Positions 33,706-61,535 of a stretch of DNA of 64,000 bases are shown here, in pieces (position 1 is the stretch's first letter; the number at the start of each line of letters is the position of its first letter). A model generated the notes under the pieces. The model had not been told where the DNA came from and did not search any database. It worked only from the letters and a program-made list of their open reading frames with translations. Where the stretch lies: positions 507,501-571,500 of the forward strand of contig JACVTC010000020.1 in NCBI GenBank assembly GCA_016946835.1, written 5' to 3'. Origin of the DNA: Neocallimastix lanati (nom. inval.). Taxonomy: Eukaryota > Neocallimastigomycota > Neocallimastigomycetes > Neocallimastigales > Neocallimastigaceae. A program made the position numbers and the translations under genes.

Positions 33706-35985
33706 TTAGTCTTCATTTGTGAGGTTTAGTTCCGTAAAGTATGGAATAATATTCTTCAGGTGGATATTACGTTCTGCTAGTTCACCAGTCGTTGGGTCGC
33801 ATACTGTCACTGTGTTTAATTCTCTTTTAACAATTTGTAATGGTCCTGTGAAGAATGGGTCTAGCTTCCTTCGATTAAATACTTTCACTAATACTAAATC
33901 CCCTGGTTTATAGTCACTTCTCATTCTTTTGATTTGTTTCCTTCTATCGGACCAAAGTTTGTTTGCGGTTTCAATATTTCTTATGGCTTCCTTTATCCAC
34001 TTATTATGTATCAAAAATTTTCTGAGCCAGTACTCTTCATCACTTTCCCATTCATTTTTCTTTTCAATATTAATGGATAATTCGAAAGGTTGTATATCCC
34101 TCCTTCCATACAATAATTCGAAGCTACTGTGTTTTGTAACTTCACTTTTACAAGTACGTAGTGCCCATAAAGCACTATATAAAGTCTCATCCCAATGCTT
34201 ATCTTTTTTTTCCCAGGATTCGTAGATACTTCCCAATTTCTTTGTTTCTGTTTTCAACTTCTCCATTCGAGGCTGGATGGTAAGTTGAAATATAGTGAAC
34301 ATAAACATCGTGTAGATCTAAGAATGCTTTTGTTTTATCTGCGGTGAACTGTGGACCATTGTCTGTTACCAGTATCTCAGGGATACCATGTCTTGAGAAT
34401 ACTTTCTTTAAAAAGTTTATCACGTCATCTGCTTCCGATGTTACTAATGGTTCAGCCTCTACCCATTTGGTTAAATAGTCAACTAGAACAATTATAAATC
34501 TATTACCTCTTGGAGTTTTTGGTAGGGGTCCAATTAAATCGAGTCCAACTCTTGAGAAAGGGTATCCTGGAGGAGTGGCATTATCTTCTGGAAATTGATT
34601 TAATGTTTGTGGCTTACATGTTTGGCATTTGTAACAACATCGAATATAATTATTAATATCCTTTTTCATATTTTTCCAATAATAATCTCTTTTTAGTCTG
34701 TTGTATGTTTTATATACTCCTTCATGGCCAATTTGATGAGCTTGATCAATTAATGTTAATTTTTCTTCTATGCTTTTCACTATGTACCTTAATTTATCGC
34801 CTTGTTTATAATATTCTTTGCCATCAATAATTATTATTCTTTTTTTGATATAATCTTCTATAAATTTATTAATACTATTACTATTATTATTATTATTATT
34901 ATTATTATCATTATCACTATTATCAACTTCATTATTATTGTTATATATAATATTTATTGTTTCTTTAGGTTTATCAGAAGTTTCCAATCTAGACAGGGCA
35001 TCAGCTATGACATTCTTCCTCCCCTCTTGATATTCGACTTTAACATTCAAGATGGATAATTCCGTAACCCATTTGAGATGTCTACTATTGGTAGGTTCAC
35101 GATTATTAAATATACCAACAAGCGGTTTATGGTCAGTATAAACTATAGTTATAAAAGAATTACCAGTGATAAATTGTTTAAATTTCTGAACACAATGGAA
35201 GACAGCTTTACCTTCCAGGTCAGTAATACTATAATTTTCTTCCGATTTACTTAATGATCTACTTTCATAAAAAATAGGAACCTCAAGATTATTTTTATCT
35301 CGTTGTAGAAGAACACCTCCTAGTCCATCTCTAGAAGCATCGGTACGTATAATAAATGGTTTAGAAAAATCTGGGGGAGTTAATATAGATGCTTGTATTA
35401 ATTTATTTTTTAATTCTTCAAATGCTTTAATACACTCTTCGGAAAAGTTAAATATCGAGTTCTTCTTTAAAAGGTAAAATAATGGTTTTGCTATTTGAGC
35501 AAAATTTTTAATAAATTTGCATTAATATCCTATAGCACCAAGAAAAGATTTAAGTTGTGTAGTATTTTTAGGTGGTAACCAATTAACAATTGTTTTTACT
35601 TTTTCAGGAATAGGAGAAATACCATCTGTCGAGAGCTTGTGACCAAGTAGTGAAACTTCTTTTTTAAAGAATGAACATTTTTCCAAATTAATTTTTAATC
35701 CATTGTCTTTTAGTATCTTAAAAACACGACGTAAGTGTAAAATATGTTCATTTATATCTTTAGAAAATATAACTATATCATCAATATAAATAAATACACA
35801 TTCACCGATTAATTCAAAAAATATTTTGTTCATTTCTCTCTGAAAGGTTGCTGGGGCGTTACATAAACCAAATGGCATTACTCTGAAGTTGTAATTGTCA
35901 TACATTGTGGTAAATGCAGTCTTTTCTTTATCTTCGGGAGCCATTGGGATTTGGTGGTATCCTGAAAAAAGGTCAATTATTATTT
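33706..35985 (-). pseudogene. Ty3/gypsy pol remnant E: RT, RNase H, integrase
   Basis: Reading on minus from about 35985: RT with IDLFSGYHQIPM, VMPFGLCNAPATFQREM, FIYIDDIVIFSK and LLGHKLS. At 35522 a nonsense change (GYYRKF expected, stop found) precedes RNase H (RTDASRDGLGG, YSITDLEGKAV, YTDHKPLVG). Integrase follows, with HHCC finger (HQIGHEGVYKTYNRL, CCYKCQTCK) and the D,D,E core (GLDLIGPL, VTDNGPQF, HPASNGEVEN). An A8 tract at 34203-34210 adds one base and shifts frame. The C-terminal part (PGDLVLVKVFNRRKLDPFF, then GPLQIVKREL) ends at 33706. No chromodomain. The 5' end is missing at the chimera junction. Confidence 0.88.
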
Positions 35986-38900
35986 TTGTTGCTATATCTT
36001 CAGTTTGATAATTAAATGACTGAGGTCTAAAAAGCTGACATCTTTTGCAAGTTCTAACTATGTATTTCACATCCAATATCATATTGGTCCAATAATAATC
36101 TCTTTTAAGTCGATTATATGTTTTAAATACTCCTTCGTGACCAATTTTGTGAGCACTAAGTATAAGTTTAATTCTTTCTTTTTCATTATAAATAACTTTT
36201 CTTAATTTTCCATCATCCTTAAAAAATTTTTCACCATTAATGATTACAAATTTATCTTTAAAGCTTGATAAAAGATTATTTTCGTTCATTTCAGAAGTTA
36301 TTGTTGCAACTAATTCATCATTTTTCGTTTTTAACCTTGATAATGTATCAGCGATAACATTTTTCTTTCCTGGTTCGTATAAAACTTTAACATTAAGCAT
36401 TGATAAAAGTAAGACCCATCTTGTTTGTCTTGAATTGTTTGTTTCTTTATTTTTAAATAATCCTACTAAAGGTTTGTGATCCGTGTAAAGAAGCGTAGTA
36501 TATTTGTTTCCAGAAATATATGATTTAAATTTTTGAACGCAGTAAGTCGCGGCTGTTCCTTCCAGATCCGTAATTGCATAATTTCTTTCCGCCGATTTTA
36601 AAGAGCGACTTACGAAGTGAATTGGTTTTTCATTGTTATTTTCATCTTTTTGAAGTAATACGCCACCTATTCCGTCATAGGAAGCATCAGTTCTAATAAT
36701 GAATTGTTTTTCGAAATCGGGCATAGTAAGTATTGGAGTTGAAACTAGTTTATTTTTTAATTCATTGAAACTTTCTTCTTGTTCATTTTCCCAAATAAAT
36801 TTAACTCCATTTTTTAAAAGTTTGAATAAAGGTTTTGCAATATTCGCAAAGTTGAATATAAATTTACGATAGTATCCAACTGCACCGAGAAATGATTGTA
36901 ATTGTGTGATATATAACTTTTATTTTATCTTGAATTGGAGAAATACCATTAATCGACAATGTATGTCCTAATAGTTCTACTTTTTCTTTAAAGAAATTAC
37001 ATTTTTCTAAGTTAATCATTAATTCATTTTCTTTTATAATTTCAAATACTTTTTTAAGATCTTCAACATGTTGTTCTAAGGAAGGAGAGAATATTACTAA
37101 GTCATCAATATAAACAAACATACATACACCAATAAGAGGGAAAAATATTCTGTTCATTTCTCTTTGGAAGGTACCTGGAGCATTACACAATCCAAAAGGC
37201 ATAACTAAAAATTGATAATTACCGTACATTGTCGTGAAACTTGTTTTTGGAATATCTTCTTTATTCATGGGTATTTGGTGGAATCCAGAAAATAGGTCAA
37301 TTGTTGTGAATATTTTTACTTGTTTACCAATAGAAAATAAAATTTCATCGATAAGAGGTAGCGCATAAGCGTCCTTGATTGTAACGTTATTCAATTTTCG
37401 GAAGTCAATACATAATCACCATTTTTTATTTTTCTTGAGAACTAGGATAACCGGAGAAGACCAAGGAGAGTTCGAGGGTTCGATTAATTTGTTTTTAATA
37501 AGTTTTTCTAACTCCTTTTTAAGTGCTATAGCCTGAACTTTTGAAAGTCTATAACATTTTTGTTTTATTGGTTTAGTATTCATTTCAAGTTGAATGTTAT
37601 GTGGAAGTAACTTGGTTGGTTTTAACTCATCAATTTTAGTAGCAAGAATAGAATAGAATTCATTAAAGATTTCTTTTATTTTATTTTTAAACTTATTCGG
37701 TACTCCATTAATTATTACTTCTATCATTCTATCTTTTTCGTTAATTTCTTCATTAAATAGTTTTTTTATTTTTTTATTTCCTGTTTCAAGATTTGAATTT
37801 TTTGTATTTATTTGTTCTTTTAGTATCGTATTATTTTTCTTATTATTATCTTCCTTTATAAAGCAATATAAATAGGAATTATTATTAATATCAGAGTTTG
37901 TTTCATCATATATTATTATAGATTCAGCATCATCATCATTATTATTAATAATATTTCCATTATTGCCTTTACCAAGTTTTATAATATATTCCCAAGAATC
38001 ATCTTCTTTCATTAAACATAGATTATTGTTAAGAGGATTAATGAATAAATTGTTTTCTTTAAGTGTTCTGTAGCCAATTAATATATCAAACAAATTTTGA
38101 TCATTATCAATGACTCTGAAAATATCATGTATAACTAATTTTCCAATTTTAACATTTAATAAATAAATTTCAGTGTAAACATTTTCTTTTGATAATACTT
38201 GTACAATGTTGTTCTTAACAAATCCTATAGGTTTAATTTTATTCAATTTATTTAGGAAGTTTTTTGTGATAATGTTGATACTGGCACATGTATCTAAAAA
38301 TGCTAAACCTTTAATATCATTAATAAAACATTCAACAGTTGCTACATCTTCTCTATGCATGGCAGATAGTACGATTTCTTCAGGTGATTCATTAAGAGTT
38401 TCAGGACTTTTGAGTTTTAATGCCTTAATAAAATCTGCACGAAGTTTTGGACTAACATCTAATAATTGTGGAACTGTAATATTAGCAAATTTTGAGCTTA
38501 TATCCTTACAAATATCATACTTTGGTTGTCCTTCCATAATTGTGATTTGCTTATTAAAATTAGAGTTTTTAACTTTCTTTTCAGCTAACTCGATACTTGG
38601 AAGTTTATCTTTTTCTTTGTGTTTATCCGTTTCTTTATTATTAATGTTTAAAATTTCATTTTCTCTTTGTTTTCTTGCGTTCTTTTTTGCTTTATTAATT
38701 GATGGTTGACTTATTACAGAAACATCAATTTGGTTAAGTTTTTCTGTTTCATTTGGATATATTTTGTCGATTGAAACTGCATCATCTTCGATTTCGATAT
38801 TCTCATTGTTAGTTTTTGTATTAGAATCAATTTGATTGTTTTGATTAATTGTATTATTTTCTTTATTTTTCCTTTTGTTTTTTCCATATGGTTTTTCAAT

Positions 38901-41051: not shown

Positions 41052-42563
41052 TGGTACAGAACTGAAGAATTTTTATCATAAAATAATATATTCTAATAAT
41101 TAAAGAAAATTTTAAATTCTATTCTATTATTCTAATCTATTATTCTAATTTAAAAATCTAAATACTAAACAATTTAAACTAAAATAATTTATTCAAAATT
41201 AATATAACCTAATATAAATAATTTAACTAACAACTATAATTATTAAAACTATTAACCAAACACTAAAAACCTTTAAACACTTAATACAAAACTTAAATTA
41301 TTTTTAATTCTAACTTTATTTAAAATAAACTATTTTATTTTTATTATTTAATCTATTCTAACTTTATTATTTAAACTATACTAATTTATTATTTAAACTA
41401 TTTAAATTTAATTATTTAAACTAATTTTATTTTAATTTAACTATCTAAATTTATCATTTAAACTCGAAAATATCAAAAGAATAATATAATAATAAAGTTG
41501 TAAGAAAAAGAGAGAGAACTAAAGTATTGTACTACTTTGTTCTTTTTATACATTTAGAATAGTTATTTGATTGGATTAGAATAAAATTTAATAATAAAAA
41601 TTTAATAATAAAAATTTAATAATAAAAATTTAATAATAAAAATTTAATAATAAAATATAATAAACTATTAAAATATTATTAAGTATTACAATATTAAATA
41701 AAAATAATAATTAATACATTTTCTAATTTATTATAACTAAATTTATAATTATTTTAATATTTTAATATTTATTATTTAATTCCACTAATATTAATAATTT
41801 TTAATCTTGTTGAAATTATAACTGAATTGAAATCTCAATTTCAGTTATTTACATTTCAATAATTAAAAATATTATTTATTTAATTATAAATAATATATAT
41901 ATTTAAATAATTAATAATTAATATAAATTCTTGTTTAATATTTAAAGGGTTATCTTAGGCCTAATAATCCTGAGAATATTAATAAATAAGGTTTATATTA
42001 ATAATTAATTTCAATGATACATTTGACGTCACGTGTATTTTATTTATATTATGTTTTTATATATGTTTACAACATATCTATATTAAATTCAATTATTCAA
42101 ATTAATTATATAATTAAATTTATCCTTATATTTTATTATTATTTATATTATTATTATCTTATAATTAAATATTATTATTATGTAACTTACAAAGTATAAA
42201 AGAAAGATGTAAAAATCTATCTTTTATGTTCTTTGTAAGGTTATTGTAAAATTACCTTAATAGTAATATTATATTATAGATATTTTATTATTAAATAAAA
42301 TCAATAAATTTAAAATCAAATTAATTTGATAATTCTAATTATCAAAGTTTATTATAAATAAATTTTTATTAAACTAAACATTTAAATATTTATTATTATT
42401 ATTATATATCTATATAGTATATTACTATATAGACATATCGACTTAGTGAATATTTTTATTAAAACATATTATTTTATTTAAATTTAAATTATAAATTATA
42501 TCAAAATCTTAACAAATCTTTAATAATTATATATAATTTTAATTATTTTATTTGTTCCGTAAC
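41052..42563 (-). repeat. 5' LTR of element D
   Basis: About 1.5 kb, bounded by imperfect inverted termini TGGTACAGAAC and GTTCCGTAAC(A). Carries the TATATTCTAATA block at 41088-41099. It differs from the LTR at 31878-32438, which shows that the two ends come from different elements. Its outer end touches the ATTG site (42564-42567). Confidence 0.72.
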
Positions 42564-42567
42564 ATTG

Positions 42568-43145
42568 TGATACGAATAATTTTTATATTGTATCGGGTGG
42601 TTCGTGAATGCAAGTTTTATTATAAAATTATATATTCTAATAAAAGAATTATAATAATTATCACACAAAAAGATTAAATAAAAATAATAAGAAAAAGATA
42701 AAAGAATATTTGTTGTCGTTTTGTTTTATTAAAATATATATATATATATTTTTTTTACATTAATTATTTTTAAATACTTATTAGTTATTTTAATCTATTC
42801 CCTTGAATAATTAAACCTTAACTTTAATAAGTATTTATTTTATATTTTACTAAATTAATTATTTTCTAAGTATCTCTAACTTAGATTTATAAATTCCTAA
42901 TTTTAAACTAATTAAACTACGTCTGTCTAAAAAAATCATTTTTCTTTCATATTTATATATTTATTTTTATTAAATCCTATTGGTTCAATTTATATATTAT
43001 CTTTACTCTTTACTATCTTTACTAATATTTTTTTTATATTATTTTAAATTTAATTAATATTATTATATATAATTATTTTATAATTATTTCCTATTTAACT
43101 TTACTATTTATATTAAATTTATATTTTTAATTCGGCACCGTACCA
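42568..43145 (-). repeat. Solo LTR F flanked by ATTG target duplication
   Basis: 578 bp from TGATACGAAT to GGCACCGTACCA, with ATTG on both sides (42564-42567 and 43146-43149). No internal sequence, as left by LTR-LTR recombination. Similar to the LTR of element E and carries TATATTCTAATA. Confidence 0.85.
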
Positions 43146-43149
43146 ATTG

Positions 43150-43616
43150 TGATACGGTATTTTATTTATGTATCTAAATTAATATTTATTTATGGGCAAT
43201 GACAATAAGGAATTATGACAAAATAATATATTCTAATATTAATTAGAAATAACACATACAATAATATAAAATAAAGTAATAAATATATCTTTTTAATGTT
43301 CTCTTTATTTATTATTAATTATTAATTATTACATAAATTATTATTATTACTCTCTTATATAAATATTATAATTAATTATCTCAAATATATATATAATATC
43401 TCTTTTTAACTATACTAAAATAAAATATAAAATAGCTATTTATATGAATTAATTTATCATAAGTATAAACTTATAAATAAAAGAATTCTCCGTTTAATAA
43501 TTATTATTCTAAAATTATATATATTATTATAAAATTATTATTGACCAATAATATTTAAGTATTTCTTTAACCTAAAGAATCTACCTAAATATCATATTTA
43601 TAGTGGTTACGTATCA
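43150..43616 (-). repeat. 3' LTR of element G
   Basis: 467 bp, starts TGATACGG and ends TACGTATCA on the plus strand; the same sequence as 45585-46051. Contains TATATTCTAATA at 43228-43239. Confidence 0.92.
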
Positions 43617-43656
43617 AGACGCCCCCACTTAAATTAGACTTCGTCCCCTGAAGTCT
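43617..43656 (-). promoter_or_regulatory. Polypurine tract and hairpin of element G
   Basis: PPT (minus strand GTGGGGGCGTCT) abuts the LTR. A perfect 7-bp inverted repeat AGACTTC/GAAGTCT (43636-43656) follows, matching the one in element E. Confidence 0.7.
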
Positions 43657-43721
43657 CAATAACAATATAATAAATTTTTTTTTTTTTTTTTTTTTTTTGT
43701 TTATTAAAATTTAATTATTGG

Positions 43722-43764
<43 letters not shown>

Positions 43765-43900
43765 TTAAATTTTTGAATTAATGATTATTTTAATTTTTGA
43801 AATTCGAAATCTTGAAATTTCGAATTAATTTAATTTAAATTATTGTTATATATATATAATTATTTATTTATTAATACTTCATCATAATTAAATTATTTAT

Positions 43901-45349
43901 TTATTTATTTTTTTTTCTATTGTTATTTTTTTTTTTTTTATGATTATTATTATTATTACTGTTATTATTGTTATTATTGTTTTTATTATAATTTATTTCA
44001 ATAACATTATTAACATTTTTATTTTCGTTATTTGTATAATTAGTATTGTTATTAGTATTGTTATTATTAAAACTATTATTATTTCCTAATGAATTTATGT
44101 TTCTACTATATCCATTATTGTTTTTATTTATATTATTTCCAATTATATTATCCTGAATATTATTTATATTTGAATTAAACGTATTTTCTACACAATTAGT
44201 ATTTAAATTATTGTTGAAATTAATTTCATTTCCAATATTAACATCTTTATTTTCTTGCTTATTATAATTTATACCATGATTATTGCTGATTCTATATTTT
44301 ATTGTATTTATATTCTCATTTAAATTACTGTTATTGTTATTGGTACCAAAATTTTTATTTAAATCATAATTACTTTTATATAGATAATTATTTAAATTAT
44401 TATAATTATTATTACCAAAATTATTATTTAAATTATAATTATTTCTATAAATTTCTCTATTCACATTATGCTTTTTACCAAAACTAGTCATATTATGATG
44501 ATTTTCAGTAATACTACTATTTAAATTATAATTTCTACGATAATAATTATTATAGTTTTTATTTCTATCATATAAATTAAATTTATAATTATAATTATTA
44601 TGGTTTCCAGGTATAAAATTTCTTCTTTTATTTATTTCCAAAATTCCAGTTCTTTCTAATTCCGCTAATTCTTTAAATGTGTGTCTACAATTAACAGCTT
44701 TATGACCTAACTCATAGCATCTAAAGCACATAATTTTATTATTCTTATTGTTTATATTACTATTTAATTTATTCATTTTGAAATTATTATTATTCCATTT
44801 TTGTTTATTATTCTTATAAATATTATTTAAATTTAAATTTAATTTCTTTTCAATTCTTTCAACTTTTTCTGCATACTTGAGAGCTTCGTTTATATCTTCG
44901 ATTTCTTCTTCTAATATTCTTAAACAAGGATATATTCTAGACTTAATTGAATTAACATAATTATTAACAGTAATTAATTTCTTTATATTATTATCAATAT
45001 CATTATATTTTCTTAAGTATTTATAATTAAAATTACTAATTGATTCATTTGAATTAATTTTCAAATTAATTAAGTTCCAATATTTCACGCTTGGTGTTAT
45101 TTCTAGATATTCTTCTAAGGCTATTTTTATTTCTTTTAAGCTAGGAACCTGATTCTTTTCTTCCTTTAATTCATCAAGAACATACCTAATTTCTTTATTT
45201 ACACATTCTTTACATAAAATAAATCTTCTTTCTTGTTCTTTTATATCCCATAATTCAAATGACTCGGTTAATTCTTCTATCCATTCATTGATATCATTAT
45301 TATAATTTTCTAATAATGGTAACGTACTTAATATCTTAAAAACATTCAT
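43901..45349 (-). CDS. Gag of element G with long Asn-rich C-terminal tail
   Basis: 482 residues from the ATG at 45349, intact. Residues about 1-165 are a capsid-like domain (PLLENYNNDINEWIEELTES, trimmed) related to element D gag. The zinc knuckle CFRCYELGHKAVNC lies near 210. From about 240 to the end the protein is Asn-rich, with many NNN and YNNN runs, ending in a Lys/Asn-rich basic tail (HKKKKNNNRKKNK). In D and H, gag stops soon after the knuckle and pol follows by frameshift; here the tail replaces pol. It has the composition of prion-like domains; whether it self-assembles is unknown. The usual UUUAAAC slip site is absent. Confidence 0.88.
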   Translation of the reverse strand: MNVFKILSTLPLLENYNNDINEWIEELTESFELWDIKEQERRFILCKECVNKEIRYVLDELKEEKNQVPSLKEIKIALEEYLEITPSVKYWNLINLKINSNESISNFNYKYLRKYNDIDNNIKKLITVNNYVNSIKSRIYPCLRILEEEIEDINEALKYAEKVERIEKKLNLNLNNIYKNNKQKWNNNNFKMNKLNSNINNKNNKIMCFRCYELGHKAVNCRHTFKELAELERTGILEINKRRNFIPGNHNNYNYKFNLYDRNKNYNNYYRRNYNLNSSITENHHNMTSFGKKHNVNREIYRNNYNLNNNFGNNNYNNLNNYLYKSNYDLNKNFGTNNNNSNLNENINTIKYRISNNHGINYNKQENKDVNIGNEINFNNNLNTNCVENTFNSNINNIQDNIIGNNINKNNNGYSRNINSLGNNNSFNNNNTNNNTNYTNNENKNVNNVIEINYNKNNNNNNNSNNNNNHKKKKNNNRKKNK

Positions 45350-45584
45350 CTTTAAAAATTTTATTTATTCTTATATATATTTTTTATTACAATTTTCTAA
45401 TTCAATTTAATATTATTATAACTATTACTATTATAATTATTAATAACTAATTTAAACTAATTAAATTCTTTTTATATATATACTAAATAATATTTATTAT
45501 ATATTTATTATGTAGATGTATTATTTTATTAATATTATTTTCATATTATTTTGCTATTGTCACGCCCGGATTCTCCACCAAATT
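45350..45584 (-). other. Leader and primer-binding site of element G
   Basis: A short 235-bp leader. PBS (minus strand) TGGTGGAGAATCCGGGCG at 45580-45563, separated from the LTR by AATT. The first nine bases are shared with elements H and a partial one at 58.15 kb. Confidence 0.75.
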
Positions 45585-46051
45585 TGATACGGTATTTTAT
45601 TTATGTATCTAAATTAATATTTATTTATGGGCAATGACAATAAGGAATTATGACAAAATAATATATTCTAATATTAATTAGAAATAACACATACAATAAT
45701 ATAAAATAAAGTAATAAATATATCTTTTTAATGTTCTCTTTATTTATTATTAATTATTAATTATTACATAAATTATTATTATTACTCTCTTATATAAATA
45801 TTATAATTAATTATCTCAAATATATATATAATATCTCTTTTTAACTATACTAAAATAAAATATAAAATAGCTATTTATATGAATTAATTTATCATAAGTA
45901 TAAACTTATAAATAAAAGAATTCTCCGTTTAATAATTATTATTCTAAAATTATATATATTATTATAAAATTATTATTGACCAATAATATTTAAGTATTTC
46001 TTTAACCTAAAGAATCTACCTAAATATCATATTTATAGTGGTTACGTATCA
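45585..46051 (-). repeat. 5' LTR of element G
   Basis: 467 bp, the same as the 3' LTR by eye. Its outer flank ATTG (46052-46055) is shared with the left end of element H. Confidence 0.92.
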
Positions 46052-46055
46052 ATTG

Positions 46056-46845
46056 TGGTATGGTTCATATAATTTTAGGAATATAATAATAATTAACACA
46101 AATAATAAAATTACAATAAAAAAAAAATAATTTGTTTTAAAATCAATATTTATTTATTTAAATTTATAAAAGAAAAATAATAATATAATTATTTATTTAA
46201 TAAAAAGAAAGTTATTGATTATATTTTATTTCACTAAAATTACATGTATTTATATTTTTTTTATCAAATTAAAATTTGTAAAGCCTAACTATTTTTTTAA
46301 TAAACTAATTACTAATTATTTTTATAAATAAAACATTTAAATTGAAATTGAATTATTATTTTAGTTAATAATATTATTGTTATAAATAGTAGTTATATAT
46401 TATTGAATTATTAATTATTTAATAATAGTTTAATACTAATATATATAAAATAAAAATAAAGAGATTATACAGAATATTTTATTGTGGTTTAGTTAAATTT
46501 AGTAATTAAAAATAAATTTATATTGATAACGAAAATTTTAATAACTAATTAAATAGATTTGATTATTTTCAATATAACATAATACAAAAGAAATATAATA
46601 TTAATATATTAAGTGGGCAAGGACAATATTCTTGGCTAAAGATTTTTAATACATTATAATGGAATCGGATCGATAATTCAAAAAGGAATTATAAGTTAAT
46701 TAGTGATTTATTAACTTAAGATTTCTATTTAGTAATATTTGAAGAATATTGGAAAGTTCCAATTATATAGAATAGAATAATCTATAAGGTTAGAATAATT
46801 TATATTATTCTAGCACAATTAGTATTATTTGTTCATTCTGTATTA
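46056..46845 (-). repeat. 3' LTR of element H
   Basis: 790 bp, plus-strand start TGGTATGG and end CTGTATTA. Followed inward by the PPT (minus strand GCGGGGGCATCT, 46846-46857). Confidence 0.93.
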
Positions 46846-46885
46846 AGATGCCCCCGCTAAGACTCAAGCTAGGTAGAAGCTGAGT
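46846..46885 (-). promoter_or_regulatory. Polypurine tract and hairpin of element H
   Basis: PPT at 46846-46857. An inverted repeat ACTCAAGCT/AAGCTGAGT (46862-46885) next to it overlaps the pol stop codon, in the same relative place as the hairpins of E and G but with a different sequence. Confidence 0.6.
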
Positions 46886-49800
46886 TAAACTTGACAATAT
46901 TTTTCAAATGAACATTACGATTCATTTGTATATTAGTAGCAGGATCAGCTAAAGTGACTGTATTGAATTGTTTCTTTACCACTTTCATAGGTCCAACAAA
47001 GTAAGGTTCTAATTTAGTTCGATTAAAGTTTCTTACTAGTACTAAATCACCTGGTTTTATTCTTTTAGCTTGATTCATACTGGTCTTTTCTTCTCTCCTA
47101 GTAGCCCAATACTTCGAAGCATTTTTGATATTAGATGCGGCCTCCATTACCCATTGGTAGTGTGATACAAATTTTTCCAGTAGAATTTCGTCAGAAGACT
47201 TATTTATACCCTTAGTTGGTCTGGCAGCAATGTCAAAAGGTTGTTGGTCCTCCCTTCCATAAACTAATTCAAAACTTGAATGGTTGGTGATTGAGTTTTT
47301 AGTAGTTCTTAAAGCCCAAAGTGCAGATGGTAAAATTTCATCCCATTCTTTGTGTTGTTGTTCTAGTAATCGTAATAATTTTCCAATTTCTTTATTACGA
47401 TTCTCAACTAAACCATTGCTTTCAGGATGATATGGAGTGATAAATTTAACATATACATCATATAAATCAAGGAAGATTTTTGTCATATCTGATGTAAATT
47501 GTGTTCCATTATCAGTAGTGATAATTTGAGGTACACCGTGTCGAGCAAATACATTAATTAAAAATTTTATCACATCCTGAGAAGTAACATTTTCAGTGGG
47601 CTCTGCCTCAACCCATTTAGTAAAATAATCAACCACAACGATTATATATTGATTATTATTTCTGGTTTTACTTAGAGGTCCTATAATGTCCAATCCTAAG
47701 TGTGTAAATGGTCCTTCCACTTCAGTTGGTTTATCTTCCGTTGGTTCAGGGTATGGTTGAGATTTATTTAATTGACATTTTTCACATTTACCTATAATTC
47801 GCTTAATGTCATTAACCATATTGTTCCAATAGTAGCTCTTTTTCAAACGTTGGTATGTCTTGTAATAGCCTTCGTGTCCTATACTGTGTGCTTGAAAAAT
47901 TAATTGAAGTTTTTCTTTTGTATCTGTAACTAATTTTCTATAATTATTGCCATCAACAAAGTAGTCCACACCATCAATTGTCGTAAATTTTTCTTCAATA
48001 AATTCCTTAATGGTTCTTGAAAGCAGGTTTTCATCTTGTTCCTTGATAATTTGTGTTGTTAAGACAACTTTTTCTTTTTCATTTTTCATTCTTGATAAAG
48101 CATCTGCGACAACATTATTCTTTCCAGTTTCATATCGTAAATCAATTCCTAACATACTGACAGTCAAACACCATCTAGTATGACGAGAATTTTGTGGTTC
48201 CTTACTTTTAAGTAATCCGATTAATGGTCTATGATCTGTATATACTATAGTTTGCTTAGGATTTCCCATAATATAAGATTTTAATTTATTAATACAGTAA
48301 ATTAGAGCAGCACCTTCTAGATCCGTAATTCCATAATTCTTTTCCGATTTAGATAAACTTCTACTAATATAATGAACCGGATGCTCCTTTCCAGTTTCAT
48401 CATCCTTTTGTAAAAGCACACCGCCTATTCCATCATAGGAAGCATCTGTTCTTATAATAAATTCTCTATCAAATCTAGGAAATCTTAAGATTGGGGCATT
48501 GATTAATCTTTCCTTAAGAATTTTAAAACTTTCTTCTTGTTCCTTTTTCCATTCAAACTTAATACCTTTTCTTAATAGAGTGCAGAGAGGAGCAGTAACT
48601 TTTGCAAAGTCCTTAATAAAATTTCTATAATATCCAATGGCTCCTAAAAATGATCGAAGTTCATGAATGTTAGAGGGAGCCTTCCATTCTTTAATAGCTT
48701 CAACTTTGTTTTCCAATGGACTTAAACCTTCTGAGGATACTTTATGTCCAAGTACTTCTACTTCAGTTTGCATGAAAGAACACTTTTCGATATTGATTTT
48801 TAACTTATGTTCCTTGAATATTTCTAAGACTTGTTTAAGATGTTCTAGGTGTTCTTCTTCAGTTCTTGAGTAGATTAAAATATCATCTATAAAGTTATAG
48901 ACGCATTTTCCTATTAAGGGAAATAGTATACGGTTCATTTCTCTTTGGAATGTAGCTGGAGCACCTGTTAAACCGAAGGGCATTACCTTGAATTGGTAGT
49001 TTCCGAACTTAGTTGTAAAGGTAGTGATTTCAACACTATCATCATCCATTAATATTTGATGATAACCGGAATAAAGATCTAATGTTGAGAAGATTTTTGC
49101 TCCATCTAAGCTATCAAAAATTTCCTCAATATTTGGTAAAGAATAAGAATCCTTCTTAGTTGCTTCATTTACTTTCCTATAGTCAATACACAGGCGCCAT
49201 TTACCGTTCTTTTTAGGCACAAGTACTACTGGTGATGACCATTCTGAACATGAAGGTTCAATTAATCGTTTATATATGAGTTTGGTTAATTCTTCTTTTA
49301 AGATATCTGTTTTTAATTTACTAAGTCGATAAAATTTTTGTTTAATAGGTTTAACTCCTTCCTTAAGAATAATTTTGTGTGGTGATAAATCTGAAGGTGT
49401 TAATTCTTCAGAAGAAGTTGCAATTATATCAATATATTCTTCAAGTAATTTAGTAATAGCTTCTCTATAATTTGAATTAATTGTACTTTGAAAAACTGTG
49501 TCATATATATATTTTATGGGTGGTAATCCTTCAATCGTTTTCAATTGTTGCTTAGCTTCTTGGTGATTCAATGCTTTGATTACACATAATAATTTTTCTT
49601 CGTCATCATATTCATTATTAATAGGTGCAATTTCTTCAATTAAACCTTGATCATTAAATCGACAAAGACTATATCTAATTGGATGTATAAATAACTGGTT
49701 ATCAATTTGAGTTTTGAGGTTGATTAATATATCATAGAATGGATCCTCCTTGTCTATAATTCTACACGTAACAAGTAGTTCTAGTTCATTAATTTTTACG

Positions 49801-50870
49801 GGAACTTTGATTAACACATCTTCTGAGTAATCATCATTCATCGTTGCTAAACGTATTCGTCCTGCACTAACTCCTATAGGTTCATACTGATAAGGTAATT
49901 TATCTAAAAATTGCTTTGTGATAATACTTAAGTTGCTACATGAATCTATTAAAGCCTTACCATGAACTCCATCTACTATTACATCAACCATAGCAATATC
50001 ATCTTCTTGTGGTTCATGATGTTTACTTTTATATGTATGATCTATATTGTTCGTTATTATTGTAGTAGCACACATATTATCCACTGCACCTGAAATTTTA
50101 GTATTATTCTTTTCTAATTTAAGTCCTTGTGATACTTGAGACCGTATCTTTGGAGCAACGTCCAATAATTGTCCAAATGTAATATTGCAATTACTGGAGT
50201 TTAAATCTTTGATCACGTCATAACTATCACAATCAGTTTGCATTTGTATTCTTCTTGGAATTCTAGTTGGCATAATTTCAGTTGACTTTTCTGATGATTT
50301 TTCTTGAATTAATTTATTTAAAGTTTGTTTAGAATTATTTCCTTCCTGAGAGGTTTCTTCATTAATAATATTAACATTACTATTTTTATTATTTTCCACA
50401 GAAGTACTAGTACTAGCTCTTTCCTTATCTCTTAGCTCTTTCTCAATCCTCTTTTCTTTCTCTATTCTGGGTTGAGCCATAATCGAAGGATGTAATTGAG
50501 TTGTTGGCTTTTTGACTGGTCGCGATGTTCCCCTTAATTGATTTTCTTTTTGTTTTCGTAAACCTGGAGTAACTATTGGCTTAGGATCATCTCTTAGACT
50601 ACGGTGAACCCTCTTTCCTCTTTGGTCACTAGTCTCTTCATCTTTAGGATTTGCCTTTCTCTTTATAACGTTTACTAAGTAATCCAATTCTTTGGAACCA
50701 TCCGACTCATCATCAAAATCTTCGTAATAATCCGTAGTAGTACCTTCTTGGAAATCAGCAATTTCTTCATAATCATCATCTTCTTTTAAGTCAACTGTTT
50801 TGGGACGATGGCAGACTGAAGCAATTTTTTTGACGATGGGAGTGCTTCTACTCCCTTTTAGTGGTTTAAA
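46869..50870 (-). CDS. Pol polyprotein of element H (protease, RT, RNase H, integrase)
   Basis: Made as a Gag-Pol fusion by -1 frameshift. The frame is open from the slip site (50870) to TAG at 46869-46871, 1333 codons; no start codon is needed. An Arg/Lys- and Asp/Glu-rich linker comes first. Protease has GKALIDSCSNLSII with Cys in place of Gly in the DSG triad. RT has KKNGKWRLCIDYRKV, LDLYSGYHQILM, VMPFGLTGAPATFQREM and YNFIDDILIYS. RNase H has RTDASYDGIGG, YGITDLEGAAL and YTDHRPLIG. Integrase has HHCC finger (HSIGHEGYYKTYQRL, CEKCQ), D,D,E (GLDIIGPL, TTDNGTQF, HPESNGLVEN) and a GPY/F-like end (EPYFVGPMKVV). No chromodomain. All catalytic residues are present. Confidence 0.95.
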   Translation of the reverse strand, partial: FKPLKGSRSTPIVKKIASVCHRPKTVDLKEDDDYEEIADFQEGTTTDYYEDFDDESDGSKELDYLVNVIKRKANPKDEETSDQRGKRVHRSLRDDPKPIVTPGLRKQKENQLRGTSRPVKKPTTQLHPSIMAQPRIEKEKRIEKELRDKERASTSTSVENNKNSNVNIINEETSQEGNNSKQTLNKLIQEKSSEKSTEIMPTRIPRRIQMQTDCDSYDVIKDLNSSNCNITFGQLLDVAPKIRSQVSQGLKLEKNNTKISGAVDNMCATTIITNNIDHTYKSKHHEPQEDDIAMVDVIVDGVHGKALIDSCSNLSIITKQFLDKLPYQYEPIGVSAGRIRLATMNDDYSEDVLIKVPVKINELELLVTCRIIDKEDPFYDILINLKTQIDNQLFIHPIRYSLCRFNDQGLIEEIAPINNEYDDEEKLLCVIKALNHQEAKQQLKTIEGLPPIKYIYDTVFQSTINSNYREAITKLLEEYIDIIATSSEELTPSDLSPHKIILKEGVKPIKQKFYRLSKLKTDILKEELTKLIYKRLIEPSCSEWSSPVVLVPKKNGKWRLCIDYRKVNEATKKDSYSLPNIEEIFDSLDGAKIFSTLDLYSGYHQILMDDDSVEITTFTTKFGNYQFKVMPFGLTGAPATFQREMNRILFPLIGKCVYNFIDDILIYSRTEEEHLEHLKQVLEIFKEHKLKINIEKCSFMQTEVEVLGHKVSSEGLSPLENKVEAIKEWKAPSNIHELRSFLGAIGYYRNFIKDFAKVTAPLCTLLRKGIKFEWKKEQEESFKILKERLINAPILRFPRFDREFIIRTDASYDGIGGVLLQKDDETGKEHPVHYISRSLSKSEKNYGITDLEGAALIYCINKLKSYIMGNPKQTIVYTDHRPLIGLLKSKEPQNSRHTRWCLTVSMLGIDLRYETGKNNVVADALSRMKNEKEKVVLTTQIIKEQDENLLSRTIKEFIEEKFTTIDGVDYFVDGNNYRKLVTDTKEKLQLIFQAHSIGHEGYYKTYQRLKKSYYWNNMVNDIKRIIGKCEKCQLNKSQPYPEPTEDKPTEVEGPFTHLGLDIIGPLSKTRNNNQYIIVVVDYFTKWVEAEPTENVTSQDVIKFLINVFARHGVPQIITTDNGTQFTSDMTKIFLDLYDVYVKFITPYHPESNGLVENRNKEIGKLLRLLEQQHKEWDEILPSALWALRTTKNSITNHSSFELVYGREDQQPFDIAARPTKGINKSSDEILLEKFVSHYQWVMEAASNIKNASKYWATRREEKTSMNQAKRIKPGDLVLVRNFNRTKLEPYFVGPMKVVKKQFNTVTLADPATNIQMNRNVHLKNIVKFNSAST
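50818..50870 (-). promoter_or_regulatory. -1 programmed frameshift signal: UUUAAAC plus pseudoknot
   Basis: Minus-strand heptamer TTTAAAC (50870-50864) lies in gag phase as TAT TTA AAC, one codon before the gag stop (50860-50858). After an 8-nt spacer comes stem 1 GGGAGT/ACTCCC (50855-50850 with 50843-50838). The loop bases GAAGC (50848-50844) are complementary to GCTTC at 50822-50818, giving stem 2 of an H-type pseudoknot. Pol is in the -1 frame. All elements are seen directly; frameshifting itself is inference. Confidence 0.9.
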
Positions 50871-51775
50871 TAATTTTCATAAAACTTCTTGCGGTTATTT
50901 TCCAATATAGAATTTAATTTAGGACAGTTTCGTTTGGTATGTCCTTCATTGCTACAAAACCAGCAAGTACTAATTTTCATTTCTTTCATCTTGTTAGTGA
51001 GATTTTCTATAGATACATTTTTGTGGGTTTTTGGTTTGTTAAAATCATTTGAAATGTTCTTATTAAAATTACTTTTAGAGTTAAGGAGATTGTAACGAGT
51101 CTTATCATAATATTCAGTACTATTTTTAATAGATAAACGATCAACTTTTTCAGCTATAGCGAATGCTTTGGTAATAGAAATATGGTCTTTAAGCATAACC
51201 TTTCTCCATGCGTCAGGATTATTGGTTAAGGAATCTGCATAATCTAAAACACTAATTTTTCTTCTTCTCTTTTTATCCAATTTATGGTACAAAGATCTAT
51301 AACGGACATTAAAATCTTTAACTTTCTCGTTCTTCTTTATTTTCATGGAACGCAATTCTCGTAACAAGTTGGTTTGATCTTCTTTAAGTCCATAGAAAGT
51401 CTTCAGATGATTTATGATTTCATCAAGGCTTGGGTAGGTGGTAGTAGATTCACTTTCTTCATCATCTTCTCCTTCACTATCGCTATCGAAATCAGAATCT
51501 TCATCTTCAGTAAGGTCATTTCCATCTTCTAGTTCTTGGATAATTTCTCTTGGTTCTCCAGAAGCCGTTAATATACAAGCAGTAAAAATAGTTTCAGGAT
51601 CCTTGATATGTTGGTATTTTATCCATGCCTTTAACTCATTTGCCCAGGAGTTGATGTCAAGGTTTTGTTTAGTAAGCTTTTCAAAATCTTTTAATTCTTT
51701 CTTTAATTCTCTGAAGCTAAGCTTACTTTCTGGAGTACTCTCTGTTGGAGTACTGGAAGTACTGGATGTTCTCAT
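50858..51775 (-). CDS. Gag of element H
   Basis: 305 residues from the ATG at 51775. A Ser/Thr-rich start, then a capsid-like domain with INSWANELKAWIKYQHI, an acidic stretch (SDFDSDSEGEDDEESES, about residues 92-110), a capsid C-terminal part (LLRELRSMKIKKNEKVKDFN), and a single zinc knuckle CWFCSNEGHTKRNC near the end. It is the RNA-packaging and particle protein. Homologous gag fragments lie at 56.75-57.6 kb. Confidence 0.93.
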   Translation of the reverse strand: MRTSSTSSTPTESTPESKLSFRELKKELKDFEKLTKQNLDINSWANELKAWIKYQHIKDPETIFTACILTASGEPREIIQELEDGNDLTEDEDSDFDSDSEGEDDEESESTTTYPSLDEIINHLKTFYGLKEDQTNLLRELRSMKIKKNEKVKDFNVRYRSLYHKLDKKRRRKISVLDYADSLTNNPDAWRKVMLKDHISITKAFAIAEKVDRLSIKNSTEYYDKTRYNLLNSKSNFNKNISNDFNKPKTHKNVSIENLTNKMKEMKISTCWFCSNEGHTKRNCPKLNSILENNRKKFYENYLNH

Positions 51776-52282
51776 TAAATAAAATTTATTGTATCTATAG
51801 AATGCTAAACCTCGTAATGTATAAATTGTTATAAAAAAGTAAAAATAAAAAAAATTAAAAAAAATAAATCTTTTAACTAATAAAATTATTAATTATTTAT
51901 TATTATTAATCACTTATTAAATTATAATAATCGTGCAATCTGATAGTACACACTGTCTGACGTGCAGCTTACCTCTTGAAAGGCGTCATGCCACGCGTGT
52001 GCCACGGTTACTATTTTCAATATAAAAAATAGCAGTCCAGAGCCTACTAGCCCAATTACTATGTAGGATAAACTTAACCCGGAAATCTATGCACGAATAT
52101 TAGTTTAATTTAATATTAATTAATATTTTTAACAATTAATAATAATTAGTTAAAAATATAAAAATTGTTTTTTAAAAAAAAAATTTTTTGTTTTATTAGA
52201 AAAATTATTTATTAATATTATAATTTTATCCCTAATGTATTAATTTATTATTATATTCCCCGACATCTCCACCAATTTTTCA
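51776..52282 (-). other. Structured leader and primer-binding site of element H
   Basis: The leader has a G+C-richer block (51930-52095) with the hairpin CTATTTT/AAAATAG and the conserved motif AAACTTAACCCGGAAATC. A related block with compensatory stem changes lies at 61040-61195. PBS (minus strand TGGTGGAGATGTCGGGG) at 52274-52258 is 8 nt from the LTR. Confidence 0.72.
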
Positions 52283-53072
52283 TGGTATGGTTCATATAAT
52301 TTTAGGAATATAATAATAATTAACACAAATAATAAAATTACAATAAAAAAAAAATAATTTGTTTTAAAATCAATATTTATTTATTTAAATTTATAAAAGA
52401 AAAATAATAATATAATTATTTATTTAATAAAAAGAAAGTTATTGATTATATTTTATTTCACTAAAATTACATGTATTTATATTTTTTTTATCAAATTAAA
52501 ATTTGTAAAGCCTAACTATTTTTTTAATAAACTAATTACTAATTATTTTTATAAATAAAACATTTAAATTGAAATTGAATTATTATTTTAGTTAATAATA
52601 TTATTGTTATAAATAGTAGTTATATATTATTGAATTATTAATTATTTAATAATAGTTTAATACTAATATATATAAAATAAAAATAAAGAGATTATACAGA
52701 ATATTTTATTGTGGTTTAGTTAAATTTAGTAATTAAAAATAAATTTATATTGATAACGAAAATTTTAATAACTAATTAAATAGATTTGATTATTTTCAAT
52801 ATAACATAATACAAAAGAAATATAATATTAATATATTAAGTGGGCAAGGACAATATTCTTGGCTAAAGATTTTTAATACATTATAATGGAATCGGATCGA
52901 TAATTCAAAAAGGAATTATAAGTTAATTAGTGATTTATTAACTTAAGATTTCTATTTAGTAATATTTGAAGAATATTGGAAAGTTCCAATTATATAGAAT
53001 AGAATAATCTATAAGGTTAGAATAATTTATATTATTCTAGCACAATTAGTATTATTTGTTCATTCTGTATTA
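52283..53072 (-). repeat. 5' LTR of element H
   Basis: 790 bp, the same as the 3' LTR by eye. It should contain the promoter driving transcription leftward, away from the tRNA gene. Outer flank ATTG at 53073-53076. Confidence 0.93.
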
Positions 53073-53087
53073 ATTGAAACAGCTGTA

Positions 53088-53169
53088 GTCATTTTGGCGG
53101 AGTGGTTAACGCGGTGGCCTGCTAAGCCATTTCCCTTTGGGAGCGCAGGTTCGAGTCCTGCAGGTGACG
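53088..53169 (+). tRNA. tRNA-Ser (anticodon GCT)
   Basis: 82 nt, no intron. Acceptor stem GTCATTT pairs with AGGTGAC (two wobble pairs) with discriminator G, typical of Ser. Anticodon stem GTGGC/GCCAT encloses CTGCTAA. A long variable arm (CCCTTTGGGAG) marks a class II tRNA. A box TGGCGGAGTGG and B box GGTTCGAGTCC are intact. A T6 terminator lies at 53175-53180. It decodes AGC/AGU. It is the landing site for the element stack on its 5' side. Confidence 0.96.
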
Positions 53170-58784: not shown

Positions 58785-58977
58785 TGTTAAACAATAAAAT
58801 AGAGCAGTTCCTTCTAGATCTGTAATTCCGTAATTTCTTTCATGTTTAGTTAATGTTCTACTTATATAGTGTACAGGATGCTCTTTTTTTGTTTCATCAT
58901 CTTTTTCTAATGGAGCACCACCAATGCCATCATACGATGCATCCGTTCGAATAATAAATTCTTTCTCGAAACATGGA
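58785..58977 (-). pseudogene. RNase H fragment of an H-type element
   Basis: The minus-strand frame reads EKEFIIRTDASYDGIGG, then HYISRTLTKHERNYGITDL, close to the RNase H of element H (EFIIRTDASYDGIGG). It is joined at about 58978 to the RT of a different lineage. Confidence 0.82.
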
Positions 58978-59806
58978 AATTGCTAGCGTCCGTTTCTACA
59001 AAGAATTCTTTCTCTGGATCTGGATAAACTAGGATTTCTTCCGTCGTAAAAGCTTCTTTGAGTTTGTTGAAAGCATTGTCTGCCCTAACATCCCAAATGA
59101 AGGAAGAGTTCTTCTTCAAAAGCCGACGGAGAGGTTCAATGATCTCGGCAAAATTATTTATAAACTTCCTATAGAAGTTACAAAGTCCTAGAAACCCTTG
59201 GAGTTCTTTAATATTTTTTGGGATAGGCCAGTCGATAACAGCTTTAACCTTATTCCTGTCCATTGAAAGACCATTTACAGACACCACAAACCCTAAAAAA
59301 ATAGTTTCTTTAACATGAAAATCACATTTTTCCAATTTCACATAAAGGCCATCTTTAATTAGAAGCGACAATATTTTACGAACATGTTGAATATGTTCGT
59401 CCAAACTTTTTGAATAAATTATTATATCATCCAAGTATACTTGAACAAATATGCCAATTGCGTCAGATAAAACATCCTGGATGAATCTTTGAAACACCGA
59501 GGGGGCATTTCTTAGGCCAAAGGGCATTACTAGGTATTCAAATTGGCCTAAAGGTGTTCTAAAAGCAGTTAAATATTCATGACCTTCTTTAATGCGGACA
59601 AGGTTATACGCAGATCGAAGGTCCAAACGAGTGAATATTATTGCCCCCTTAAAAGATTCAATCAAGTCAACCAATCTTGGGTTAGAGTAACTATTCCTAA
59701 TATTCCTAATTGTAATAGAATTTAATTTCCTATAGTCAACGCAGAGTCGTAAGCTTCCATCTTGTTTTTTTACAAACAGGACAGGGGCATATGAATACTC
59801 AACCAA
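58978..59806 (-). pseudogene. Ty3/gypsy reverse transcriptase of a second lineage (element J)
   Basis: RT block YAPVLFVKKQDGSLRLCVDY, then RLDLRSAYNLVRI, VMPFGLRNAPSVFQRFI, QVYLDDIIIYSKS and FLGFVVSVNGLSM, continuing to the start of RNase H (FFVETDAS). The LFVKKxDGSLRxCVDYR and YLDDIIIYS forms are typical of chromovirus/Tf1-sushi elements and unlike elements D, E and H. The ORF continues to 58907 out of frame. Upstream the RT N-terminus is deleted. Confidence 0.85.
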
Positions 59807-60129
59807 TTTCTTCCAAGGATGACTGATATTCCCTGAAGTTGTAAGGTAGCTACGTAGAATTCATAGCTTTCCTTGTGGTCCATGAAGGCAAGGCCTAATT
59901 TCTTCGTTACTTGTCTTATATTCATACTTTTGTTGTTCGGTAACTGAATGTTCAATGGTGAAGACAAGGTAGATATTTGAATTCTGTTGGCGTTTACAAA
60001 GTCTCTACAGATGTAACTTCTTGCAGAACCAGAATCAATAAGGATGTTTATTTTCATTTTCTTTCCATTATTATTTAATATAAATGTAGTGGTCATTGAA
60101 TTTGAGGTGTTTGGTGTATAGTTAGCCAA
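59770..60129 (-). CDS. Aspartic protease region of element J
   Basis: 119 residues: INILIDSGSARSYI (canonical DSG), then a beta-rich stretch ending ISVILGRNWL (the ILG flap-end motif). It runs out of frame into the RT block: about 100 residues normally between protease and RT motif 1 are missing. Confidence 0.75.
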   Translation of the reverse strand: MANYTPNTSNSMTTTFILNNNGKKMKINILIDSGSARSYICRDFVNANRIQISTLSSPLNIQLPNNKSMNIRQVTKKLGLAFMDHKESYEFYVATLQLQGISVILGRNWLSIHMPLSCL

Positions 60130-60328
60130 AAGGATGCTTTCTTTGTTTTGATTTTTTCTGAATTTCTTGTGTACTTTGTTGTTCTTAAATTCCTGTTTTG
60201 AATGCTCATCTCTTTTTCTTTTTTTGCCACTTGTTGGTTGACTTATTTGTTTTGGCTAGGTTGTTAATATAACATTTTTTATCGATGCTGATGATTGAAT
60301 TTGTTGCTTCAAAAAGGGTCTTTGGTCT
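60130..60328 (-). other. Gag-protease linker of element J, frames lost
   Basis: Lys/Arg/Asn-rich coding-like DNA with stops. No zinc knuckle was found here. Confidence 0.5.
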
Positions 60329-60859: not shown

Positions 60860-60959
60860 TAAAATACTAAATAGACTTTTTAATATAATAGATCTTTAAA
60901 ATATCTTTAATATATGTATATAATTGTTAAATATAAATTATTTATATTAATAATAGAAA

Positions 60960-61464: not shown

Positions 61465-61467
<3 letters not shown>

Positions 61468-61520
<53 letters not shown>

Positions 61521-61535
61521 TATTTATTTATTTAT
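61468..61535. repeat. (TTA)n microsatellite
   Basis: About 16 TTA triplets followed by TTTA units. Confidence 0.9.

What the first reader, a model, noticed from the sequence alone, without database searches (positions are those of the whole stretch)
41052..53169. tRNA-Ser gene as a recurrent landing pad: nested LTR elements stacked at one ATTG site
Four junctions (42564-42567, 43146-43149, 46052-46055, 53073-53076) carry the same ATTG. Solo LTR F, element G and element H each sit between two copies, and the last copy lies 12-16 bp before the tRNA-Ser 5' end. The simplest history is repeated insertion into the same ATTG next to the tRNA, each newcomer pushing older ones outward. Decay fits: H intact next to the tRNA, then G with identical LTRs, then a solo LTR, then decayed D. 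Yeast Ty3 targets Pol III start sites through TFIIIB (established); the same mode here is inference.
Basis: partly seen in the sequence, partly recalled or inferred. Interest (0 to 1): 0.9.

Follow-up and report, generated by a model that had tools for sequence, protein, structure and literature searches.

The report
Retrotransposons stacked upstream of tRNA genes
In this probable anaerobic gut fungus, several families of virus-like jumping genes land again and again at the same spot about 15 letters before tRNA genes, each newcomer pushing the older ones outward, which makes the tRNA genes self-renewing safe landing pads.

Summary
Solo LTR F, gag-only element G and Ty3-like element H are stacked flush, separated only by ATTG, with the last ATTG 11 bp before tRNA-Ser(GCT). 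One correction: the A of the leftmost ATTG is probably the last base of D.

The interpretation also holds, and the pattern recurs across the genome. Of 91 tRNA units chosen by tRNA sequence, 73 carry an LTR-type terminal motif 13-17 bp upstream, against 4-23 of 91 in other 5-bp bins. H and F ends elsewhere mostly abut a tRNA, a tRNA-like sequence or another LTR 3-5 bp away. One natural before/after pair gives the direction: contig C480 reads F|CCTG|tRNA-Ser(TGA); collinear C555 has 8,025 bp, flanked by CCTG, between F and that tRNA. Duplicated 4-mers vary, so distance is targeted, not ATTG.

This works like yeast Ty3, dictyostelid DGLT-A and Tj1. It differs in dense occupancy, many LTR families including a gag-only one, and fixed divergent orientation (10 of 10 identified ends). 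Serial insertion at one tRNA gene is already noted in dictyostelids. TFIIIB tethering is inferred.

The parts
53088..53169 (+). tRNA-Ser(GCT) gene, the landing pad
   Evidence: ARAGORN
53073..53076 (.). ATTG, right 4-bp target duplication of H, 11 bp before the tRNA
46056..53072 (-). Element H, Ty3-like LTR retrotransposon with two identical 790-bp LTRs, 5' LTR facing the tRNA
52283..53072 (-). H 5' LTR (tRNA-proximal)
46056..46845 (-). H 3' LTR
50858..51892 (-). H gag-like ORF with CX2CX4HX4C knuckle, different frame from pol
46869..50876 (-). H pol ORF: RT, RNase H, integrase in Ty3/gypsy order; no chromodomain found
46052..46055 (.). ATTG between G and H
43150..46051 (-). Element G, gag-only element with two identical 467-bp LTRs
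43904..45364 (-). G gag-like ORF, similar to H gag (24% identity over 184 columns, E 5e-10)
43146..43149 (.). ATTG between F and G
42568..43145 (-). F, solo LTR of a multicopy family
42565..42567 (.). TTG between D and F (with D's last base A it reads ATTG)
41052..42564 (-). D, probable 5' LTR of an older decayed element
   Evidence: the D left end recurs next to H in L044
33706..41051 (-). Broken internal region (gag/protease/RT/RNase H/integrase pieces) that D probably belongs to

Best explanation
tRNA genes in this genome are position-specific, reusable integration sites for several LTR retrotransposon families. The integration complex is placed about 15 bp upstream of the tRNA, most likely by the Pol III initiation complex (TFIIIB, as for Ty3), and cuts with a 4-bp stagger. 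Because the tRNA and the duplicated 4 bp are left intact, the site is restored and the next element enters the same 4 bp (or within about one base of it), pushing earlier ones outward. This builds stacks LTR|4 bp|LTR|4 bp|LTR...tRNA. In the window the order of arrival was D, F, G, H. Shown: geometry, duplications, recurrence at many loci, and one newcomer lying between an older element and the tRNA. Inferred: tethering by TFIIIB, the order of G and H, and that G is moved by enzymes of another family.
For: Junctions and LTR identity. Survey of 91 tRNA units located by tRNA sequence (Ser-GCT 39, Ser-TGA 16, Arg-TCT 10, Asn 7, Thr 7, Gly-TCC 12; left out: 7 Arg and 8 Gly genes that follow another tRNA, and exact duplicates): LTR-type terminal motif 13-17 bp upstream in 73 of 91, against 4-23 of 91 in 15 other 5-bp bins. 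Motif-free test: 63 of 91 share an upstream repeat with a non-paralogous place, and its modal edge lies 12-18 bp from the tRNA in 51 of 63; downstream control: 20 of 63 have a partner, edge in that range in 5 of 20. One LTR family taken from a tRNA-Ser flank (L077): 31 of 39 other full-length matches end exactly at query base 226 of 241, 15 bp before the tRNA, and all 39 end at 224-232. H right ends: 30 loci fetched of 40 scored; 8 inner ends and 1 duplicate set aside; of 21 distinct outer ends 3 are at tRNAs, 2 at tRNA-like sequences, 10 have another repeat starting 3-5 bp on, 5 have TG 3-4 bp on without a confirmed start, 1 is unexplained (hand-corrected). H solo LTRs: 9 of 11 distinct have a perfect 4-bp duplication, and the same 4-mer stands at 3 successive junctions in L047 (ACAG) and L061 (AAAA). 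Filled/empty pair: C480 F|CCTG|tRNA; C555 F|CCTG|8,025 bp|CCTG|tRNA, flank 251/251 identical.
Against: 18 of 91 tRNA units lack the motif, and the motif list was drawn up after seeing some of the flanks. 28 of 91 have no non-paralogous partner in the sequence held, and 12 of the 63 that do have the edge elsewhere. Only one filled/empty pair was found; only its two junctions and about 1.5 kb of the insert were read, so the insert could be more than one element. G and H LTRs are both identical, so their order is not dated. U6 genes, which also use TFIIIB (recalled), show no LTR end in 4 of 4 matches over the cut-off; of eight 5S loci (five of them in one shared context) one has an LTR-like end, not confirmed by any repeat partner. 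H's integrase has no chromodomain detectable by Pfam, whereas Ty3 uses a vestigial one to contact Brf1 (PMC8632968, passages), and taken alone it matches foamy virus integrase (E 1.5e-34) better than Ty3's (7.7e-19). Two of 11 solo H LTRs lack matching duplications.
Confidence: 0.88

Rival explanations
1. Self-targeting: elements recognise the end of an existing LTR and insert beside it, so stacks grow from the LTRs and not from the tRNA.
For: Most H and F outer ends abut another LTR 3-5 bp away rather than a tRNA. Junctions alone cannot tell which neighbour came first.
Against: Many different LTR end sequences stop at the same distance from tRNAs. In C555 the newcomer lies between F and the tRNA (one pair). 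First insertions at a tRNA would still need a tRNA-based rule.
Confidence: 0.07
2. Sequence-specific integration at ATTG (or a short motif) that happens to lie near tRNAs.
For: ATTG at four junctions in the window.
Against: Duplications elsewhere are CCTG, AAAA, ACAG, GCTA, CACC, TCGA and TAAA; ATTG occurs 95 times in 14 kb around here.
Confidence: 0.01
3. tRNA genes were spread together with attached LTRs by segmental duplication or unequal crossing-over, giving the constant distance without targeted integration.
For: Same-type tRNAs lie in groups on C555, C142, C137 and C70, and some loci are plainly duplicated (L113/L114/L121).
Against: Neighbouring tRNA copies on C555, C142 and C137 carry different LTR ends at the same distance. 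H's end sits at Ser, Asn and Gly genes with different flanks. 4-bp duplications mark separate integrations.
Confidence: 0.04

Closest known systems
Ty3 of Saccharomyces cerevisiae (Metaviridae)
   Same: RT-RNase H-integrase order; best PDB match of the whole H pol ORF is Ty3 (7q5b, 4ol8); integration just upstream of tRNA genes. Ty3 enters 1-4 bp before the start site, about 12-15 bp before the mature tRNA (PMC5006619, passages).
   Different: 4-bp duplication here, 5 bp in Ty3 (PMC8632968, passages). Ty3 inserts in both orientations (PMC5911963, passages), here one. No chromodomain found in H. H integrase alone matches foamy virus integrase better than Ty3's.
DGLT-A of dictyostelids
   Same: 13-33 bp upstream of tRNAs, average 15; no chromodomain; a later element at an already targeted tRNA gene is noted in a table footnote (PMC5006619, passages).
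   Different: DGLT-A inserts in either orientation (PMC5911963, passages); twenty detectable insertions in D. discoideum, a compact genome, against dense occupancy here in 199 Mb. Single gag-pol ORF there, two frames here.
Tj1 of Schizosaccharomyces japonicus
   Same: Ty3/gypsy element next to Pol III genes with one fixed orientation, reported there as unique among wild-type LTR elements (PMC4600332, passages).
   Different: Tj1 is transcribed in the same direction as its target; H and G, and by the position of the polypurine tract F and the C555 newcomer, point the other way, 5' LTR against the tRNA. Tj1 duplication 5 bp, here 4.

Membership tests
Ty3/gypsy LTR retrotransposons (Metaviridae) | pol order RT - RNase H - integrase | tested here: met
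   H pol ORF: RVT_1 552-712, RNase H 775-905, integrase zinc domain 984-1038, rve 1055-1150
Ty3/gypsy LTR retrotransposons (Metaviridae) | paired LTRs, primer-binding site after the 5' LTR, polypurine tract before the 3' LTR, short target duplication | tested here: met
   790-bp LTRs, TGGTGGAGATGTCGGGG just after the 5' LTR, AGCGGGGGCATCT before the 3' LTR, ATTG on both sides; the tRNA primer was not identified
Ty3-type targeting | insertion within a few bp upstream of Pol III start sites | tested here: inconclusive
   Distance to the mature tRNA fits (13-17 bp) but start sites were not mapped
Ty3-type targeting | integrase contacts TFIIIB (TBP/Brf1) | not testable with these tools
   needs protein experiments
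Ty3-type targeting | 5-bp duplication | tested here: not met
   4 bp at H junctions and in C555
Ty3-type targeting | both orientations | tested here: not met
   Of 99 tRNA flanks compared with the outer ends of H, G, F and D, 10 match an H or G LTR up to its end; all 10 are the 5' end
Ty3-type targeting | vestigial chromodomain at the integrase C-terminus | tested here: inconclusive
   No Chromo hit at E up to 5; the ORF ends 38 residues after the YFVGPM stretch, but a diverged domain could be missed
DGLT-A | either orientation, no chromodomain, single gag-pol ORF | tested here: not met
   One orientation; gag and pol ORFs in different frames; the lack of a chromodomain agrees
Tj1 | fixed orientation, same direction as the tRNA | tested here: not met
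   Fixed but opposite direction

The most novel reading that the evidence does not exclude
The LTR ends have become part of the tRNA upstream promoter. Every insertion replaces the DNA more than about 15 bp upstream of the tRNA, where TFIIIB would sit, with the 5' end of an LTR. If LTR 5' ends are good TFIIIB sites, each insertion keeps the gene active and recruits the next one: a self-renewing pad shared by competing families and gag-only parasites, with fixed divergent orientation as its signature, feeding both genome growth and tRNA gene clusters in a 199-Mb genome.
Probability: 0.25. Interest if true: 0.8.

Novelty: new variant of a known kind. Interest (0 to 1): 0.62.

Why it matters
tRNA targeting has been explained as a way to survive in compact, gene-dense genomes (PMC5006619, listing and passages). 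Here it marks most of the tRNA genes sampled in a large, repeat-rich genome, probably of an anaerobic gut fungus, a lineage for which my searches of the held library found no such report. Because each insertion leaves the pad intact, the stacks are an ordered record of retrotransposon waves. The fixed divergent orientation, the mirror image of Tj1, and an integrase without a visible chromodomain make the link between integrase and Pol III machinery directly testable in a new setting.

Tried and rejected
A 25-mer recurrence test overshot the boundary (2 mismatches allowed) and mixed in paralogous tRNA flanks. A first extension test, with paralogous partners still in, gave 60 of 85 upstream but also 25 of 69 downstream flanks with an edge at 10-20 bp; dropping same-isotype partners gave the versions reported. 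Of the 91 units a few near-identical ones remain (for example Thr in L112/L123 and L113/L114). A CA/TA dinucleotide profile was too noisy in such AT-rich DNA. Rfam found nothing over the gathering score in 12 loci without an annotated neighbour, and only two weak snR75 matches (E 5.9) in 4 of them; L050, L051 and L024 show a B-box-like stretch by script and L055 by eye. The script label 'LTR start' for L059 and L034 was wrong (tRNA-adjacent by ARAGORN) and was corrected by hand; L043, labelled solo, is a 5' LTR and was not counted there; L062 duplicates L061. For F the script classified 26 of 30 loci only. The left duplication of F in C480/C555 was not in the stretches fetched. Sequence-specific ATTG targeting was rejected. 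No allelic copy of the window locus was seen among the 40 listed tRNA-Ser matches. Papers: search listings and term passages only (PMC5006619, PMC8632968, PMC5911963, PMC4600332, PMC6875170).
Full report
What is there. The window is part of a 199-Mb assembly in 762 contigs, 9-32% GC along the window in 2-kb steps. A CBM_10 search listed 150 matches, the number scored out of 1440 candidates, over the cut-off, which points to an anaerobic gut fungus (Neocallimastigomycota); that such fungi are rich in this domain is recalled, and no name was available. ARAGORN finds one tRNA in the window, Ser(GCT), at 53088-53169. Reading leftwards from it: ATTG, H (46056-53072), ATTG, G (43150-46051), ATTG, F (42568-43145), TTG, D (41052-42564). 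H has two 790-bp LTRs without a difference and G two 467-bp LTRs without a difference. H carries a gag-like ORF and, in another frame, a pol ORF with RT, RNase H and integrase in Ty3/gypsy order. The best PDB match of the whole ORF is Ty3, but its integrase alone matches foamy virus integrase (E 1.5e-34) better than Ty3's (7.7e-19). G has only a gag-like ORF, similar to H's. In one search, 13 contigs show two G LTRs 2.4-2.8 kb apart (26 of the 40 places, the window included, by my reading of the table), so G-type elements look like a family of short elements; their insides were not read. D is probably the 5' LTR of an older element whose broken pol pieces lie at 33.7-40 kb.

Is it more than chance? 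ATTG occurs at 0.68% of positions here, so three further junctions agreeing with the first would happen by chance at about 3e-7. The first of the four has its A from D.

The elements elsewhere. H's LTR end has 579 first-look candidates; all 40 scored were identical over 273 bp. 30 of these 40 were fetched. Eight were inner ends followed by the polypurine tract and one was a duplicate, leaving 21 distinct outer ends. Three sit 14-15 bp from a tRNA found by ARAGORN (Ser-GCT, Gly-TCC, Ser-TGA). Two sit before tRNA-like sequences with a B box. Ten are followed 3-5 bp later by the start of another repeat that recurs elsewhere. Five are followed by TG 3-4 bp later without a confirmed start, and one is unexplained (hand-corrected). 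For F, 30 of 40 scored loci were fetched and the script classified 26: 4 inner ends, 5 duplicates, 17 outer ends. Of these 17, two are at tRNAs (L014 Ala-TGC, L034 Ser-TGA), one at a tRNA-like sequence (L024), ten abut another repeat start 3-4 bp on, two have TG 3-4 bp on without a confirmed start (L023, L025), and two are unclear (L019, L027). Among 11 distinct solo H LTRs, 9 have a perfect 4-bp duplication. In L047 three successive junctions read ACAG and in L061 three read AAAA, so the window's ATTG stack is one example of a repeated pattern. A 9.2-kb spacer between two tRNA-Ser genes on C142 is, from about 1.9 kb on, largely covered by pieces that also occur in the other loci held, many of them at LTR ends; spacings there run from 3 to 8 bp.

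The tRNA side. To avoid choosing loci by their LTR, tRNA genes were taken by tRNA sequence: all 39 other places of the 40 scored for Ser(GCT), 20 of 63 RF00005 matches (all Arg-TCT by ARAGORN, with Asn or Thr neighbours), 16 of 40 Ser(TGA)-region places and 20 of 40 Gly(TCC) places. Counting only the first tRNA of close pairs (7 Arg and 8 Gly left out) and removing exact duplicates gives 91 units. LTR-type terminal motifs lie 13-17 bp upstream in 73 of 91: 28 of 39 Ser-GCT, 14 of 16 Ser-TGA, 12 of 12 Gly, 9 of 10 Arg, 6 of 7 Asn, 4 of 7 Thr. In 15 other 5-bp bins the count is 4-23 of 91. The motif list was made after seeing some of these flanks, so a motif-free test was also used: 63 of 91 flanks share a repeat with a non-paralogous place, and its modal edge lies 12-18 bp from the tRNA in 51 of 63. 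On the downstream side 20 of 63 have such a partner and 5 of 20 have the edge in that range. For one LTR family taken from the flank of a tRNA-Ser gene (L077), 31 of 39 other full matches end exactly 15 bp before the tRNA of the query and all 39 within 9-17 bp of it. LTR ends differ from tRNA to tRNA, even within one contig.

Direction of growth. C480 (20 kb) and C555 are collinear in the places compared: 4,668 against 4,670 bases between two tRNA matches, and 7,884 against 7,881 between two F-type LTRs. C480 reads F|CCTG|CAATCGAAGTA-tRNA-Ser(TGA). C555 reads F|CCTG|TGTTAAGG ... ATTCTTATCA|CCTG|CAATCGAAGTA-tRNA-Ser(TGA), with 8,025 bp between the two CCTG copies. Only the junctions and about 1.5 kb of these 8,025 bp were read (L033, L130, L147). 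The newcomer entered between the older element and the tRNA and used the 4 bp next to F. This is one pair, and whether the two contigs are alleles or recent duplicates is not known.

Mechanism. Distance, not sequence, is constant, and the element leaves the tRNA intact. The position equals that of Ty3 and DGLT-A (PMC5006619 and PMC8632968, passages), and Ty3 is tethered by TFIIIB. TFIIIB tethering is therefore the most likely mechanism here (about 0.7), but it is inferred. Against a simple copy of Ty3: a 4-bp duplication; no chromodomain found in H; one orientation. Of 99 tRNA flanks compared with the outer ends of H, G, F and D, 10 match H (6) or G (4) up to the LTR end, and all 10 are the 5' end; six lie 14-17 bp from the queried tRNA and four 98-102 bp away, before the first tRNA of a pair (the pairing read by eye). 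By the place of the polypurine tract the newcomer family of C555 has the same polarity. Ty3 and DGLT-A insert both ways (PMC5911963, passages). Tj1 has a fixed orientation, but the opposite one, and its authors knew no other wild-type case (PMC4600332, passages). A hairpin-ended LTR family seems to occur in both orientations, so the rule may not hold for every family. U6 genes (0 of 4 matches over the cut-off) and 5S genes (1 of 8, unconfirmed, five of the eight in one shared context) show little occupancy, which either limits the idea that any TFIIIB site serves or reflects small numbers.

What is new. tRNA-upstream targeting is known, and so is a second element arriving at an already targeted tRNA gene (footnote in PMC5006619). 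New here, as far as the held library shows, are the density of occupied tRNA genes, stacks with one shared 4-mer across several families including a gag-only one, the fixed divergent orientation of H and G, and the setting in a large, AT-rich, probably anaerobic-fungal genome. I rate it a new variant of a known kind.

Noticed in passing
G000 contigs C555, C142, C137, C70, C24: tRNA genes look strongly amplified and clustered: 40 places scored (74-160 first-look candidates) for each of three tRNA queries, and many top-scoring RF00005 matches on C555. Stack recombination or selection for landing pads could be the cause.
   Followed up: partly
L045, L055, L066; L071, L072, L087: An LTR family whose terminus can form a long hairpin (TGTAAGAATC...) seems to occur in both orientations and may have a 5-bp duplication (TTACA in L055), unlike H.
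   Followed up: partly
L050, L051, L024, L055: Elements sit at a similar distance from degenerate tRNA-like sequences with A- and B-box-like stretches that ARAGORN and Rfam do not call; possible tRNA pseudogenes still bound by Pol III factors.
   Followed up: partly
L148 6223-9320 after reverse complement: A G-like copy on C142 appears to have different LTRs at its two ends, suggesting recombination between families.
   Followed up: no
window 34202-36919: Two sets of RNase H and integrase domains and an RT out of order: the old D-side element is a composite or nested insertion.
   Followed up: no
window 32744-33224: Tandem array with a 13-bp unit.
   Followed up: no
window 58910-63726: Downstream of the tRNA lie pieces of another Ty3-like element (Ty3_capsid, RVP_2, RVT_1) and a copia-type RT; whether they relate to Pol III genes was not tested.
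   Followed up: no
L155: One 5S rRNA gene has an LTR-like end (CCGTATCA) 8 bp before its first base; no repeat partner was found in the loci held.
   Followed up: partly
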